Assembly (NCBI GenBank): GCA_018266075.1
Contig: JAFEBB010000006.1
Location: 1 to 64,000, forward strand
Origin: Deltaproteobacteria bacterium
GTDB taxonomy: Bacteria; Myxococcota; Myxococcia; Myxococcales; SZAS-1
Direction of reading: 5' to 3'
Length of the DNA stretch: 64,000 nt
Both the position numbers and the translations under genes were made by a program. How positions within the stretch are numbered: position 1 is the first letter of the stretch; every line of letters begins with the position of its first letter. The notes below the pieces were generated by a model. That model saw only the letters and a list, made by a program, of their open reading frames with translations. It had not been told where the DNA came from and searched no databases. Below are positions 1 to 27,202 of the stretch, one piece after another.

Positions 1-55
1 TCGCGACAACGAGCCTTGGTATCGCGACAACGAGCCTTGGTATCGCGACAACGAG
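1..55. repeat. 21-bp tandem repeat at the left edge
   Basis: Two identical 21-base units (tcgcgacaacgagccttggt plus a) lie at 1-21 and 22-42. A third copy matches for its first 13 bases (43-55) and then diverges. The array runs off the left edge, so its copy number is unknown. It sits downstream of the minus-strand ferredoxin gene. No coding function is evident. Confidence 0.85.
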
Positions 56-113
56 GCTCCAGGACGGGCCCACGAGACTTCAGGACGCGTCCTGGTACCG
101 CACCCCGCCTCAA

Positions 114-467
114 TCAGCGTGTTTGGGTAGCGCCCTGGAGCTCAATGATGGGCGAATCGCCGGCCACGTGCTCACGCATCACCCGCTCGAGCTTGAGGGC
201 ATCCATCTCTTTGTAGTGCGTCTCGCCGGGGCTCCCGTTGAGCTCGAAGTCCTCGGACGCGAATGGGTCCACCGGCGCGCCGGTGTCCACGCGGACGATC
301 ACGTTCGCGCCTTGCTCGCACAAGCCGTAGCACCCGCCGCGCTTGAGGCTGCACTTCGACGCCAGGCCGAGCTCGCGCACGCAGCGCTCGGCCAGGGGCA
401 CGAGCGCGTTCGAGCCATTGCCGGTGCAGTCCGGCCCCTGGCAGATGCTGACCACGTACTTCGTCAC
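114..467 (-). CDS. [2Fe-2S] ferredoxin-like protein (thioredoxin-fold type)
   Basis: This 117-residue protein begins with a GTG codon at 467. It carries the cysteine pattern of the thioredoxin-fold [2Fe-2S] ferredoxins: CQGPDC near residues 9-14, then a GGCYGLCEQGANVIV segment in the middle that matches the second pair of cluster ligands and the following strand. The family is related to NuoE and HoxE-type subunits and to stand-alone electron carriers. The start overlaps the stop of the upstream permease gene as GTGA, so translation is probably coupled. It is the last gene of a minus-strand run that begins with nuoG, which suggests an electron-transfer role near complex I, but the partner is not known. 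Confidence 0.8.
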   Translation of the reverse strand: MTKYVVSICQGPDCTGNGSNALVPLAERCVRELGLASKCSLKRGGCYGLCEQGANVIVRVDTGAPVDPFASEDFELNGSPGETHYKEMDALKLERVMREHVAGDSPIIELQGATQTR

Positions 468-1783
468 GCCACCGGCTCCACGGCCTGCGCCGCCTGCTCC
501 TTCTCCAGCATGCGCCGGTCGTAGCGCCGGAGGAAGGGCGCGTAGATGGCGAAGCTCAGCGCCAGGTTGACGAGCGAGAGCACCACCGCTCGCACGTCGC
601 CGCCGGTGGTCAGGTAGGCGCCGATGGGCGCGGGCAGCGTCCAGATCACCTCGACGCGCGGCCGGGCCACCAGGTCGAAGTGCATCGCGCACCAGGTGGT
701 GGTGGCCGTGACCAGCGGCGCGCAGATGAAGGGCACCGCCAGGGCGCCGTTGAGCACCATGGGCAGCCCGAAGAGGATGGGCTCGTTGATGTTGAAGAAC
801 GCCGGCACCGCCGCCAGCTTGCCCACGCCGCGCAGGGCCGAGCTCTTCGCGCGCAGGAGCCACAGCGCCACGGCGAGCGTGCCGCCGGAGCCGCCCTGCC
901 ACACGAAGAACTGGAAGAGCTCCTGCACGCCCACGTTCGGCAGCGGCAGTCCGGCCGCGGCGGCGTTCATGTTCTCCACCAGCATCTCCAGCCACACCGG
1001 TCGGAACGCGGCCAGCACCGCCGACGCGTGCAGCCCCAGCAGCCACATCCCCGAGTCGATGAGCACCACGGCCCAGGCTGCGGGCAGCGCGTTGCCTGCG
1101 TGGACCAGGTGCTGCGCGAGCTGCGCGGCGAGCCCCACGATGTCGATGTGCAGCAGGTGCACCACCGTGAAGACGACGACGATGGCCACGAACGTGGGAA
1201 TCAGCGCGGCGAACGATCGGACGACGACCTCGGGCGCGCCGCCCGGCAACTGAATCGTCCAGCGCCGCTTCTCGAACTGCCGGGTGAGCTCCACGAAGAA
1301 GATGGCGAGCGAGATGGCGCCGAACATGCCGCCCGCGCCCAGGCGTTCGAGCGCGATGCCCGAGCCGCTCGCGGCGAGCTTCACCGGTCCCAGCGCGACC
1401 AGAAAGGTGGCCGCCGAGCCCAGCGCGTTCGACAGCGGATCCAGCCCGTAGCGCTTGGCCAGCGCGAACGCGCAGCCGAAGCACACGTACAAGCCGAGCA
1501 CGCCGCCCAGCATCCGGTAGGGGATGAGGAGCGTGTCCTGGTACGGCTTCACCAGCTCCATCAACTTCGCGCTCGGCGGCTGCGCGGCGAGCAGGAACAC
1601 CGAGCCCACCAGCAGCAGCGGGAGCGCGCCCACCACGCCGTCCCGAACGGAGAGCAGGTGCGGCTGTCTGCCGAGCGCCTCGGCGAAGCCACGCAGCCTG
1701 GCGCTGGTGCGTTGGAGTCCCGTGGCCGCTTCAGCCGGCGCGGGTGCAGGCGCAGCGGGCGCGGCTGGGTCGGGCGCGCCCAG
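464..1783 (-). CDS. PTS lactose/cellobiose-type EIIC permease, probable CTG start
   Basis: This is a hydrophobic protein with the EIIC signature FFNINEPILFGLPMVLN in its C-terminal half, as in CelB-type permeases. EIIC moves a sugar across the inner membrane while it is phosphorylated by EIIB. The first ATG/GTG/TTG is a GTG at 1636, but that lies inside the conserved N-terminal block (LSVRDGVVGALPLLLVGS) and would give a truncated 390-residue product. The frame stays open back to the nuoI stop at 1790-1792. A CTG at 1783, about ten bases after AAGGA, gives 439 residues, the usual family length, with an Ala/Pro-rich start. No EIIA or EIIB gene is near. The family call is firm; the start is inferred. 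Confidence 0.8.
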   Translation of the reverse strand: MGAPDPAAPAAPAPAPAEAATGLQRTSARLRGFAEALGRQPHLLSVRDGVVGALPLLLVGSVFLLAAQPPSAKLMELVKPYQDTLLIPYRMLGGVLGLYVCFGCAFALAKRYGLDPLSNALGSAATFLVALGPVKLAASGSGIALERLGAGGMFGAISLAIFFVELTRQFEKRRWTIQLPGGAPEVVVRSFAALIPTFVAIVVVFTVVHLLHIDIVGLAAQLAQHLVHAGNALPAAWAVVLIDSGMWLLGLHASAVLAAFRPVWLEMLVENMNAAAAGLPLPNVGVQELFQFFVWQGGSGGTLAVALWLLRAKSSALRGVGKLAAVPAFFNINEPILFGLPMVLNGALAVPFICAPLVTATTTWCAMHFDLVARPRVEVIWTLPAPIGAYLTTGGDVRAVVLSLVNLALSFAIYAPFLRRYDRRMLEKEQAAQAVEPVA

Positions 1784-23151: not shown

Positions 23152-23514
23152 ATGGCCAGGCGCAAGGCGGGGCTGACCTACGACGACGTCCGCGAGCTGG
23201 CGCGCGCGTTCCCCGGCGTGGAAGAGGGCACCTCGTACGGCACGGCGGCCTTGAAGGTGAAGGGCAAGCTCATCGCGCGCCTCAAGGAAGACGGCGAGAC
23301 GCTGGTGCTCAAGACGGATCTCTTCGAGCGCGAAGTGCTGCTCTCCGCCGCGCCCGAGGTCTTCTTCATCACCGATCACTACGCGGCGTATCCGTGGGTG
23401 CTGGTCCGGCTCGCGAAGATCAAGCCGGAGCAGCTGCGCGGGTTGCTCGCGAACGCGGTCAGAGGCCTTGCGTCCGCAGGAACGCGTACACGTCGGCGGC
23501 GTCCTGCGCGGTGA
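23152..23514 (+). CDS. MmcQ/YjbR family protein
   Basis: The 120-residue protein has the MmcQ/YjbR fold pattern: TYDDVRELARAFPGVEEGTSYGTAALKV (quoted in part: ARAFPGVEEGTSYGTAALKV), KVKGKLIARL, and a C-terminal PWVLVRLAKIKPEQLRGLL helix. Family members are called DNA-binding by fold, but their role is unclear. The last 16 codons are basic (RTRRRRPAR) and lie antisense to the end of the convergent cytochrome gene for 56 bases. Confidence 0.88.
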   Translation: MARRKAGLTYDDVRELARAFPGVEEGTSYGTAALKVKGKLIARLKEDGETLVLKTDLFEREVLLSAAPEVFFITDHYAAYPWVLVRLAKIKPEQLRGLLANAVRGLASAGTRTRRRRPAR

Positions 23515-24250
23515 AGCCGCGTCCGAGGTAGTCCGGCATCGGGGGACGAAGCACCACACCTGCATTGTCCATATCGGCGCGCACCGCCATCGCCAGCAGC
23601 GCCGCGTTCCAGTCCGGATCCGACGCGAGGCCTCCCGCTGCGGCATCGAGCGGCGGACCGGGCAAGACCGCGGGCGAGAGCGCCGCACCCTGGGCTTCAT
23701 CCCCGTGGCAGCGCGCGCAATCGAAGCCTTGCGCGCCATAGAGCAGCTGACCTCGAGCGACATCGCCCGTCGGCATTGGCAAGATCGAAACCGTCGCGCT
23801 CACGGTCCCGCTCGCTGAGCCGCCGAGCCGCGCGTTCACGGTCACCGCGTCGCTCGGCTTGCCCACGCCCACCACGAAGAGCACGCCGGAGAGGTCGTCC
23901 GCGTGATCCGCCCGCTGTGCGTTCGCGAGGAAGAACGCAGCGGGCAAGGGCGCGCCGTCCGCGTCGGGCGCGAGTGCGTTCACGGTCATCGGCGCGCTCC
24001 ACGCGATCGTCGCGCCCTCGGGCAGCGGCTGCTCCGTCCCATCGGACAGCTCGACGCGCACCGCGAGCGCCAGCGCGTCGCCCACCTGCGCCTGCAGCGG
24101 CCCTCCCTCGCGCGCAACGATGCGATAGCCCGCGATCGACGCGCTCGGGGTTGCCTCCGACGGCTCGCCACCGCAGCCCAATGCGAGCATCACCAGCGCC
24201 GATGCGGTCGGCGCGCCGAAGCGGATCCATCCCTGCGAAAGAAAGGTCAT
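23459..24250 (-). CDS. Monohaem cytochrome c lipoprotein
   Basis: The ATG at 24250 follows a GGGGGGG stretch and gives 263 residues. A lipobox (LALGC, about residue 27) is followed by a 140-residue beta-rich domain of Big/cadherin-like type with hydrophobic alternation. The C-terminal 95 residues form a class I cytochrome c with CARCH as haem attachment and PPMPDY carrying the distal Met. The layout suggests an outer-membrane-facing electron carrier. Its 3' end is antisense to the MmcQ-like gene. Confidence 0.87.
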   Translation of the reverse strand: MTFLSQGWIRFGAPTASALVMLALGCGGEPSEATPSASIAGYRIVAREGGPLQAQVGDALALAVRVELSDGTEQPLPEGATIAWSAPMTVNALAPDADGAPLPAAFFLANAQRADHADDLSGVLFVVGVGKPSDAVTVNARLGGSASGTVSATVSILPMPTGDVARGQLLYGAQGFDCARCHGDEAQGAALSPAVLPGPPLDAAAGGLASDPDWNAALLAMAVRADMDNAGVVLRPPMPDYLGRGFTAQDAADVYAFLRTQGL

Positions 24251-24350
24251 CGTCCCCCCCTGGAAGTTGGTTGCAGCGCGGCGCGCGTTTGCGAATGCGG
24301 TGCCAGCGTGCAAGCGCGCGGAACGCCAGCGAAGGCAGCGCGAGGCGATC

Positions 24351-24464: not shown

Positions 24465-26684
24465 ATGACTTCACGCTCTTCCCGGTTCCTCGCCTGCGCG
24501 CTCGTGGTGCTCGCCGCCGGCTGCCACAAGTCGACCGACTCGAACGACGGAGGCCCGGCCGTCGACGCCGGCCCGCCCGACGCCGGCGTGCTCCACACCA
24601 CCTACCGCGTGATCGGCGGGGTGAGCATGGGCGCGCTCGGCGCGAGCATGGTGGGGCTCAAGCACCCCGACAAGTTCGACGCGGTGGTCGCGCTCGGCGG
24701 GCCGATGGACGCGGCCTTCCTGGGCACGCACATGATCGAGCAGCGGCTGATGGCTGGCTTCTGCACCCGCGAGCAGCTTGAGGCGGCGCTGGCCACGAAT
24801 CCGCAGAGCCTCAACGACCCCAAGGTCATGACCTGCACCCAGGACGTGGCTCCGACCGTGTCGACCGAGCACGCCGAGAGCTTCAACCACTGGCGCTTCA
24901 CGCACTCGGGCGGGCACTTCACGCGCTCGAGCTACCTCGACCTCTTCTACGACCTCACCTCGGCGCTCGGGAACTTCGGCACCTACAACCCGGACTCGGC
25001 GATCGCGCCCACGGGCGTTCCCGAGTCGTGGGTGAAGAACCCGCCCGCGGACGCGTGCACCAACCCCATCCGCATCAAGGGCAAGCTCTCCGACCCCAAC
25101 GGCACCCCCATCTACAACGCCGAGTACAACCCCGAGGGCAAGTACGACGCGATCACCTTCTGCGACGGCGAGGAATCGCCGATCTACTACTGCACCCACA
25201 GCAAGATCGCGGTCGACTTCTGCGGCGACGGCGGCGGAGCGATCGTCCCCCAGGCGCAAGAGGCCACGTACGCCGCTGCGTTCTGCGCCGGCGACACCGT
25301 GAGCCAGGCGACCGACGACCAGGGCACGCCGCAGGACATCCTCGACATCTACAACGCCGCGCAGGGCCGCTATGACCCGTGCCGGCAGCACTTCGAGCCC
25401 ATCCGCGTGGCGCTGGCCTTCGACTACAACGGCAACGGCATGCGCGACTACGCCGAGCCCGTGGTGAACAACTCGCACGAGCGCTACGACGACGTGGGCA
25501 CCGACGGATGCCCGGACAACCTCGAGGACGGCGACGGCGGCTGCGTGACGGATCCCTCGCAATCGCCGTTCGCGCACGGCGTGGCCGACCCGAACCACGA
25601 CAACTACGACTACGCCAACAACGCGCTCGGCACCGAGGGGGACTGGCGCTACGAGCCGGGCGAGCCGTTCCAGGACAACGGCCTCGACGGCGTGCCCAAC
25701 ACGCACGACTTCGGCGAGGGCAACGGCACGTACGACGAGAGCCGCGGCCTGGCCAAGCTGCACGCCTACGACCCGCGTCACAACTACCTGGCGCTCACCA
25801 CGCAGCAGCAGCACCAGATGGACCTCTACCTCGAGGGCGGCATCCGCGATGTCTTCAACTTCGGCGTCGCAGCCGAGGTCTTCGCCGGCGCCGTGAAGGC
25901 GACGGACCCGATGCGCATCGCCGAGTTCAGCGACTTCCCCACCATCCCCGCGAGCAACAACCCGCCCGACGAGACCAACTCGCACGGCGACGACGCGCTC
26001 TGGAACACGCTGCCGCCCAACACGCTCGAGATCTACGGCTTCGCCGACGCGGGCCCGGACGACCTCGAGGCCGGCGACGGCGACCACGTGGGCACCGATC
26101 TCCAGGCGCTGCTGCGCTTCGCGTTCATGGAGAGCTGGGTGGCCAACCGCTGGCAGGCGCTGCCGTTGCCGCCCAAGCCGCCGTCCAGCGGCGACTTCAA
26201 CCAGCGCGTGACGTACACGACGTACCACTCCAACGCGCTCAACGCCGACCGCGACTTCAGCATCTACCTGCCGCCCGGCTACTACGACCCCAGCGAGGCC
26301 AACACCCACTACCCGGTGCTCTACCTGCTCCACGGCTACGGCCAGGACGCCACCGACCTCGCGGCCACCGCCATCGCCCTCTTCGAGCCGCCCATGGGCG
26401 CGCTGCCCCGCGGCTCGCCGATCACCAACGGCCGGCCGTACATCGTGGTCTTCCCCTCGGGGCGCTGCTGCTTCCAGAACGACAGCACCCAGGCGATCGA
26501 CTGCACGCTCGCGCACCAGAACGACACCGGCTGGAGCAGCATGTGCAACCAGGGCAGCTTCTACATCAATGCCAGCGGCCCAACGGCCGACGCCCCTGCC
26601 TACGAAGACGGCCTGCTGGATCTGGTAGACTACGTGGACGCGCACTACCGCACGCTCGCGCCTGCGGACGTGCCCCAGCGCTGA
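24465..26684 (+). CDS. Large esterase-like lipoprotein with circularly permuted alpha/beta-hydrolase motifs
   Basis: The 739-residue protein has lipobox LAAGC (Cys 20). The nucleophile elbow VIGGVSMGALGASMVGLKHP, with Ser 54, stands right after the signal. A candidate catalytic Asp is D462 (LYLEGGIRD) and a candidate His is H541 (GDGDHVG). The segment that opens a normal esterase domain, SIYLPPGYYD and YPVLYLLHGYGQD with His 623, is at the C-terminus, and the protein ends with VDYVDAHYRTLAPADVPQR, the part that usually precedes the nucleophile. So the domain is circularly permuted. The middle holds calcium-type loops (DYNGNGMRDYAE). A TAGGTT box eight bases before the ATG suggests a leaderless mRNA. 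Substrate unknown. Confidence 0.85.
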   Translation: MTSRSSRFLACALVVLAAGCHKSTDSNDGGPAVDAGPPDAGVLHTTYRVIGGVSMGALGASMVGLKHPDKFDAVVALGGPMDAAFLGTHMIEQRLMAGFCTREQLEAALATNPQSLNDPKVMTCTQDVAPTVSTEHAESFNHWRFTHSGGHFTRSSYLDLFYDLTSALGNFGTYNPDSAIAPTGVPESWVKNPPADACTNPIRIKGKLSDPNGTPIYNAEYNPEGKYDAITFCDGEESPIYYCTHSKIAVDFCGDGGGAIVPQAQEATYAAAFCAGDTVSQATDDQGTPQDILDIYNAAQGRYDPCRQHFEPIRVALAFDYNGNGMRDYAEPVVNNSHERYDDVGTDGCPDNLEDGDGGCVTDPSQSPFAHGVADPNHDNYDYANNALGTEGDWRYEPGEPFQDNGLDGVPNTHDFGEGNGTYDESRGLAKLHAYDPRHNYLALTTQQQHQMDLYLEGGIRDVFNFGVAAEVFAGAVKATDPMRIAEFSDFPTIPASNNPPDETNSHGDDALWNTLPPNTLEIYGFADAGPDDLEAGDGDHVGTDLQALLRFAFMESWVANRWQALPLPPKPPSSGDFNQRVTYTTYHSNALNADRDFSIYLPPGYYDPSEANTHYPVLYLLHGYGQDATDLAATAIALFEPPMGALPRGSPITNGRPYIVVFPSGRCCFQNDSTQAIDCTLAHQNDTGWSSMCNQGSFYINASGPTADAPAYEDGLLDLVDYVDAHYRTLAPADVPQR

Positions 26685-26707: not shown

Positions 26708-27202
26708 ATGGCGGATCCATCGCGGCCGGTGGTGCAGGTCCAGATCAAGCGGCTCACGCTCGCCGAATTCATCGCCCAGGACCCGCTCCTGGAGACGAGC
26801 CTCCTGCTCAAGGCCGTGCCCGGCGCGCTCCGGCAGGAGTTCCTCTCCAAGGCGGCGCTCAAGCGCCTGGGAAAGGGCGCGTCAATCTACCGGATCGGCG
26901 AGATCAGCGGCCCGCTCTACCTGGTGCTCAAGGGCGAGGTGGCCCTGGAGAACGCCAAGGGCGTGGAGAGCCACCGCGCGCTCAAGGGCGAGTTCTTCGG
27001 CGAGAGCGAGATCGTGGATCCCTCGCCGGCCCGGCGCGGAAATGCGGTCGCTGCGACGGATCTCGACTTCGCGGAGTTCTCGGCCGAGTACGTGGCCTCG
27101 CTGCTTAAGCGCATCCCTGGCTTGCGCGGGGTGCTGGGCGAGACCGACGCCGGCCGCCGCCAGGCCGACGGCGAGCTCGACGACTTCCTCAACCGCTGGT
27201 AG
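26708..27202 (+). CDS. Stand-alone cyclic-nucleotide-binding-like domain protein
   Basis: The 164-residue protein has a cupin-like cNMP-binding fold at about residues 40-140 (LGKGASIYRIGEISGPLYLVLKGEV, quoted in part: GEISGPLYLVLKGEV; then GEFFGESEIVDPSPARRGNAVA). The GE..x6..R..A phosphate-binding cassette is partly kept (FGESEIVDPSPARRGNAVA), so ligand binding is possible. There is no DNA-binding domain. It lies six bases upstream of a zinc-ribbon gene on the same strand, so the two are probably co-transcribed. Its role is unknown. Confidence 0.8.
   Translation: MADPSRPVVQVQIKRLTLAEFIAQDPLLETSLLLKAVPGALRQEFLSKAALKRLGKGASIYRIGEISGPLYLVLKGEVALENAKGVESHRALKGEFFGESEIVDPSPARRGNAVAATDLDFAEFSAEYVASLLKRIPGLRGVLGETDAGRRQADGELDDFLNRW

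What the first reader, a model, noticed from the sequence alone, without database searches (positions are those of the whole stretch)
24465..26684. Circularly permuted alpha/beta-hydrolase in a large lipoprotein
Seen: the nucleophile elbow GGVSMGALG (Ser 54) stands just after the lipobox, while the segment that normally opens a PF00756-type esterase (LPPGYYD, YPVLYLLHGYGQD) is at residues about 605-625, and the protein ends in DYVDAHYRTLAPADVPQR. In known esterases this last part comes right before the nucleophile elbow, so the end of the protein joins its start. Candidate Asp (462) and His (541) lie between. Known: PF00756 order is oxyanion, nucleophile, Asp, His. Inference: circular permutation, perhaps by tandem duplication and loss of the outer halves, with calcium-type inserts in the middle.
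Basis: partly seen in the sequence, partly recalled or inferred. Interest (0 to 1): 0.78.

Follow-up and report, generated by a model that had tools for sequence, protein, structure and literature searches.

The report
Circularly permuted myxobacterial esterase family
This gene encodes an exported serine esterase whose chain has been re-cut so that its catalytic serine comes first and the usual beginning of the enzyme comes last, a rearrangement shared by its relatives across Myxococcota that appears to have arisen separately from the one known example of the same trick.

Summary
The 739-aa lipoprotein at 24465-26684 is one alpha/beta-hydrolase domain read in the order beta5 (Ser54), beta6, a ~370-aa cap, beta7 (Asp462), beta8 (His541), then beta1-beta4-alphaB. 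The PF00756 profile, and profile matches to solved CE1 feruloyl esterases, align in two swapped pieces that abut at the cut. AlphaFold2 gives one confident fold (pLDDT 88, pTM 0.89). All 66 homologous frames in which both halves were found have the permuted order, while 33 paralogues have the normal order, so it is not an assembly error or a broken gene. The layout itself is known: type 2 PHB depolymerases (2d80) are also nucleophile-first, and 2d80 is the best structural match (Z 15.9 over 242 residues). By sequence, however, the two families descend from different unpermuted parents (CE1 esterase here, type 1 PHB depolymerase there); a common origin of the two permuted families is rejected (AU p 3e-5). 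So this looks like an independent permutation at the same site, plus a cap domain with calcium-type motifs and no PDB match. Substrate and activity are untested. Verdict: real; a new variant of a known kind.

The parts
24465..26684 (+). Whole gene: lipoprotein, circularly permuted CE1-type alpha/beta hydrolase, 739 aa
   Evidence: ORF; PF00756 in two swapped pieces
24465..24524 (+). Signal peptide and lipobox LAAGC, lipidated Cys20 (24522-24524)
   Evidence: sequence; Cys20 at least 90% conserved in A1
24594..24710 (+). beta5, nucleophile elbow GVSMG (Ser54 = 24624-24626), alphaC and beta6; the canonical middle now at the N terminus
   Evidence: PF00756 113-153; 7xrt 144-191; model E48-53, H55-66, E73-77
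24711..25820 (+). Cap insert between beta6 and beta7 (aa 83-452), Cys-rich
   Evidence: conserved in nearly all homologues; pLDDT 92 when folded alone; no PDB match
25422..25727 (+). Acidic calcium-type motifs DYNGNGMRDYAEP ... DVGTDG ... DPNHDNYD ... GEPFQDNGLDGV ... GEGNG (aa 320-421)
   Evidence: D320, N322, N324, G325, R327, D328, E331, P332 invariant in 37 homologues; calcium binding inferred
25821..25910 (+). beta7, GGIRD with catalytic Asp462 (25848-25850), alphaE
   Evidence: invariant; E453-459, H466-480 in model
26013..26153 (+). beta8, GDGDH with catalytic His541 (26085-26087), alphaF
   Evidence: invariant; E519-524, H545-560 in model
26160..26204 (+). Linker joining the old C terminus (alphaF) to the old N terminus (beta1)
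   Evidence: lies between the two profile pieces; boundaries approximate
26202..26660 (+). beta1-beta2-beta3-alphaA-beta4-alphaB with oxyanion motif HGYG (His623-Gly624 = 26331-26336); the canonical N-terminal half now at the C terminus
   Evidence: PF00756 1-34; 7xrt 23-144; model E582-589 to H713-727
26708..27202 (+). Downstream neighbour: cNMP-binding-domain protein (PF00027)
   Evidence: adjacent in L033 and L036 too

Best explanation
This is an exported, lipid-anchored serine esterase of the CE1/PF00756 lineage whose single alpha/beta-hydrolase domain is circularly permuted. The cut lies between alphaB and beta5, just ahead of the nucleophile elbow, and the old ends are joined by a short linker. 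Shown: the swapped order, family-wide conservation of the order and of the triad Ser54-Asp462-His541 and the oxyanion motif HGYG, one confident predicted fold, CE1 parentage, and separate origin from type 2 PHB depolymerases. Inferred: it folds into a normal active site and hydrolyses an ester outside the cytoplasm; the ~370-aa cap, with calcium-type loops and disulfides, lies over the active site and sets the substrate; and the new N terminus hangs the lipid anchor (or, in long homologues, an N-terminal domain of about 300 aa) on the foot of the central strand, opposite the active site, so the pocket faces away from the membrane. Probable origin: in-frame tandem duplication of a CE1 esterase gene, followed by a new start in copy one and a new stop in copy two.
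For: PF00756 swapped. Family profile on PDB chain 7xrt: query 483-629 to chain 23-144 and query 19-67 to chain 144-191, abutting at residue 144, E 1e-19. Model pLDDT 88, pTM 0.89, with beta1-beta8 each present once. VIA-align to 2d80: Z 15.9, 242 residues, model 45..729 to chain 30..338 in sequence. 66 permuted frames against 33 canonical paralogues found by the same pair of half-profiles. hhalign: C-terminal half to CE1 columns 42-145 (prob 99.2), N-terminal half to columns 147-180 (97.2), but C-terminal half to type 2 depolymerase only 2.3. Tree: type 1 + type 2 depolymerases split from CE1 + this family at 100/100; one clade of both permuted families rejected, p 3.35e-5 and 1.8e-4 on the front half alone.
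Against: Coordinates of the model were not available, so the triad distances were not measured. No enzyme of the family has been assayed and no substrate is known. Calcium binding is read from motifs only. No duplication intermediate was seen. Type 2 is represented by four sequences, and where this family joins the CE1 group is not resolved.
Confidence: 0.88

Rival explanations
1. It is a divergent branch of the type 2 PHB depolymerases, so the permutation happened only once.
For: Same cut site within a few residues and best structural match 2d80, Z 15.9.
Against: No member of A2 matches NF050059 (type 2) even at E 10; the A2 profile does not find 2d80 at E 10; type 2 halves match the type 1 model while this family's halves match CE1; one clade rejected.
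Confidence: 0.08
2. Two half-domains side by side: the N- and C-terminal parts are separate folds or remnants, and the protein is not a working hydrolase.
For: Pfam reports two fragments; the insert between them is large.
Against: Each half lacks what the other has; pTM 0.89 for the whole; sequential match to 2d80 across both halves; triad and oxyanion residues invariant in 37 homologues.
Confidence: 0.03
3. Assembly or frameshift artefact: the true gene has a normal order and a neighbour supplies the missing half.
For: The source is a draft assembly (166 contigs).
Against: Same order in 66 frames from many independent assemblies; single open frame; neighbours are a cytochrome c and a cNMP-binding protein; synteny conserved.
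Confidence: 0.01
4. Domain-swapped oligomer: the permuted chain completes its sheet with the half of a second molecule rather than its own.
For: Inference only: permuted and split folds can swap halves, and the linker at about 566-580 is short.
Against: The monomer model is confident as one domain.
Confidence: 0.05

Closest known systems
CE1 / PF00756 esterases (feruloyl esterases 7xrt, 1jjf; myxobacterial paralogues L174-L180)
   Same: Both halves, the GxSMGG elbow, the oxyanion HG motif and the YRTRA-[cut]-RAIAG boundary
   Different: Canonical order; lack the ~370-aa cap
Extracellular dPHA-SCL depolymerase, catalytic domain type 2 (NF050059; 2d80 of Penicillium funiculosum)
   Same: Nucleophile-first permuted alpha/beta hydrolase with the oxyanion hole C-terminal to the triad (PMC2666664); cut at the equivalent point; sequential structural match Z 15.9
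   Different: Different parent (type 1 PHB depolymerase), no cap, no sequence match to this family
Alpha/beta hydrolases with permuted edge strands (3fle, 2z8x, 1lgy; PMC11878206)
   Same: A permutation inside the fold
   Different: Only beta1 and beta2 are moved and reversed; here the whole beta1-alphaB half is moved
AlgX/AlgJ/PatB1 SGNH hydrolases (PMC9487903)
   Same: Naturally permuted serine hydrolases
   Different: A different fold (SGNH)

Membership tests
PF00756 (CE1-type esterase) | Score above the curated cut-off (22 bits) | tested here: met
   46.1 bits whole protein
PF00756 (CE1-type esterase) | Collinear order: oxyanion, nucleophile, Asp, His | tested here: not met
   order is nucleophile, Asp, His, oxyanion
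PF00756 (CE1-type esterase) | Ser-Asp-His triad and oxyanion HG motif conserved | tested here: met
   S54, D462, H541, H623, G624 invariant in 37
PF00756 (CE1-type esterase) | Carboxylester hydrolysis | not testable with these tools
   needs an assay
Alpha/beta-hydrolase fold (permuted) | Eight-strand core with each element once | tested here: met
   beta5-alphaC-beta6-cap-beta7-alphaE-beta8-alphaF-beta1-beta2-beta3-alphaA-beta4-alphaB in the model; strand names assigned by me
Alpha/beta-hydrolase fold (permuted) | Triad residues meet in space | not testable with these tools
   model coordinates were not exposed
dPHA-SCL depolymerase type 2 (NF050059) | Model match above 280 bits | tested here: not met
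   no match at E up to 10 in 37 members
dPHA-SCL depolymerase type 2 (NF050059) | Oxyanion hole C-terminal to the triad | tested here: met
   order S54, D462, H541, HGYG 623
dPHA-SCL depolymerase type 2 (NF050059) | Common descent with type 2 | tested here: not met
   AU p 3.35e-5 and 1.8e-4

The most novel reading that the evidence does not exclude
The alpha/beta-hydrolase fold was circularly permuted at the same site, just ahead of the nucleophile elbow, at least twice independently: once from type 1 to type 2 PHB depolymerases and once from a CE1 esterase in Myxococcota. The second family also carries a conserved cap domain, probably calcium-bound, of a fold not seen in the PDB.
Probability: 0.75. 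Interest if true: 0.68.

Novelty: new variant of a known kind. Interest (0 to 1): 0.62.

Why it matters
Natural permutation of the core of the alpha/beta-hydrolase fold appears rare: the 2024 classification read here names only edge-strand cases. A second family, cut at the same place but from another parent, suggests that this site tolerates or favours new termini, something enzyme engineers could test directly. The same genomes hold canonical CE1 relatives and, in the window's genome, a type 2 depolymerase, so parent and permutants can be compared side by side. Database models annotate only fragments of this family and miss its architecture.

Tried and rejected
A single-sequence scan of genome contigs found no relatives; the alignment query found 42 loci. 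Matching type 2 PHB depolymerases by sequence failed, which led to the test of two origins. A search for an unpermuted protein that carries the cap found none in 193 Myxococcota genomes: the only other matches are short acidic stretches in L190 and L191. The idea that the long homologues (950-1,200 aa) are duplication intermediates was rejected: their extra N-terminal ~300 aa precede the nucleophile strand directly and hold no beta1-beta4 half. Plasmids gave only a canonical Rubrobacter esterase. Fold searches with the cap alone gave no PDB match; this does not show that the fold is new.

Full report
Observation. Pfam finds PF00756 in two pieces in the wrong order: profile 1-34 at aa 589-627 and profile 113-153 at aa 44-84. 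When a script moves the C-terminal piece to the front, the model aligns 90-153 straight across the joint and the score rises from 46.1 to 53.1 bits, or 54.9 without the insert.

Not an artefact. Relatives were found by the genome search, by a 42-locus scan of genome contigs and by a profile search of the phylum. The named records are Archangium, Labilithrix, Polyangium sp. 15x6, Byssovorax, Sandaracinaceae and other Myxococcota or unplaced deltaproteobacterial MAGs. With one pair of half-profiles, 66 frames in the fetched loci have the nucleophile half before the oxyanion half (some loci overlap, so there are fewer independent genes), and 33 weaker paralogues have the normal order. The cap is found in 57 of 193 Myxococcota genomes and 42 of 90 genera. 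Ser54, Asp462, His541, His623 and Gly624 are invariant in 37 aligned homologues. The gene also keeps its neighbours: a DUF3108 gene, this gene, a cNMP-binding gene, maf, a 566-aa gene conserved in L033-L037 and the next gene recur in Archangium-like loci (the name maf is my own reading of the sequence).

Structure. AlphaFold2 on the window protein with 36 homologues gives pLDDT 88 and pTM 0.89. The elements run beta5 (48-53), alphaC (55-66), beta6 (73-77), insert, beta7 (453-459), alphaE (466-480), beta8 (519-524), alphaF (545-560), then beta1 (582-589), beta2 (594-601), beta3 (618-622), alphaA (629-639), beta4 (660-664), alphaB (713-727); the strand names are my assignment. Each core element occurs once. 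Sequential aligners match only one half to CE1 enzymes (model 573-733; Z about 10), but match the whole chain to 2d80 and 2d81, the PHB depolymerase of Penicillium funiculosum (Z 15.9, 242 residues, rmsd 3.9, model 45..729). The model coordinates were not exposed, so triad distances were not measured.

The known precedent. [quoted passage not shown] funiculosum there (PMC2666664). My recollection, not checked here, is that Hisano et al. 2006 describe 2d80 as a circularly permuted alpha/beta hydrolase; that paper is not held. So the nucleophile-first layout is known. The 2024 classification of alpha/beta hydrolases (PMC11878206) mentions permutation only for edge strands.

One event or two? The profile of this family finds CE1 feruloyl esterases in the PDB: 7xrt at E 1e-19, query 483-629 to chain 23-144 and query 19-67 to chain 144-191, so the pieces abut. 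It does not find 2d80 at E 10, and no member matches the type 2 model NF050059 at E 10. Type 2 proteins, including one in the window's own genome (L136, 358 bits), match the type 1 model in two swapped pieces. Profile-profile comparison agrees: this family's C-terminal half matches CE1 columns 42-145 and its N-terminal half 147-180; type 2 matches type 1 at 36-129 and 130-228; the oxyanion halves of the two permuted families barely match (prob 2.3). On a tree of cores in canonical order, type 1 and type 2 stand together, apart from CE1 and this family, at 100/100. Holding the two permuted families as one clade is rejected (p 3.35e-5; p 1.8e-4 on the front half alone). Two independent permutations at almost the same residue is the simplest reading; one permutation and one reversal would also fit the unrooted tree but needs a return to normal order. 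Where this family attaches within or beside CE1 is not resolved, and type 2 is represented by only four sequences.

Cap and architecture. The insert (aa 83-452) is present in nearly all relatives, shortened in L071. It holds acidic motifs (DxNGNGxRDxxEP and others) of the kind that bind calcium, and many conserved cysteines. Folded alone it reaches pLDDT 92, with no PDB match, which does not prove a new fold. Two subtypes exist: short lipoproteins like the window's, and long proteins with ~300 extra residues (apparently an Ig-like and a ZU5-like part; the only Pfam support is ZU5 at E 0.11, below cut-off) running directly into the nucleophile strand.

Function. Most likely an exported esterase: triad and oxyanion motif are intact, CE1 is the parent, and the signal is a lipobox. 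Active-site residues of this fold sit at the C-terminal ends of the strands (established knowledge of the fold), so a tether on the start of beta5 would leave the active site facing away from the membrane. This, calcium binding and the substrate are inference.

Verdict.

Noticed in passing
L136 583-2577 (+), G000:C23: The window's own genome also encodes a type 2 (permuted) PHB depolymerase, NF050059 358 bits, so both kinds of permuted hydrolase coexist in one genome.
   Followed up: yes
L054, L044, L063, L062, L069, L068: A long subfamily (about 950-1,200 aa) carries about 300 extra N-terminal residues, apparently Ig-like and ZU5-like, ending directly at the nucleophile strand.
   Followed up: partly
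L003/L022 (G008:C62) and L005/L023 (G014:C5): Recent tandem duplications of this gene: in G008 7 of 2,127 bases differ, all at the 3' end of the gene; in G014 a 3,704-bp unit is repeated exactly, which may be an assembly effect.
   Followed up: partly
window 26708-27202; L033 8040-8540; L036 8031-8519: A small cNMP-binding-domain gene follows the esterase gene closely and is conserved, suggesting a shared transcript.
   Followed up: partly
L190 and L191: The acidic stretch DPxGDxYD..NPxGTEGN..GEPFxD also occurs in an EF-hand-like protein and near the N terminus of what looks like a neutral ceramidase, as if it were a mobile calcium-loop cassette in Myxococcota.
   Followed up: partly
L042, L051, L058: Some homologues have extra CNDGIDNDGDGLxDxxDxxC repeats inserted inside the oxyanion half.
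   Followed up: no
window 23459-24256 (-): Divergent neighbour upstream: a cytochrome c lipoprotein that seems to have an extra N-terminal beta domain.
   Followed up: no
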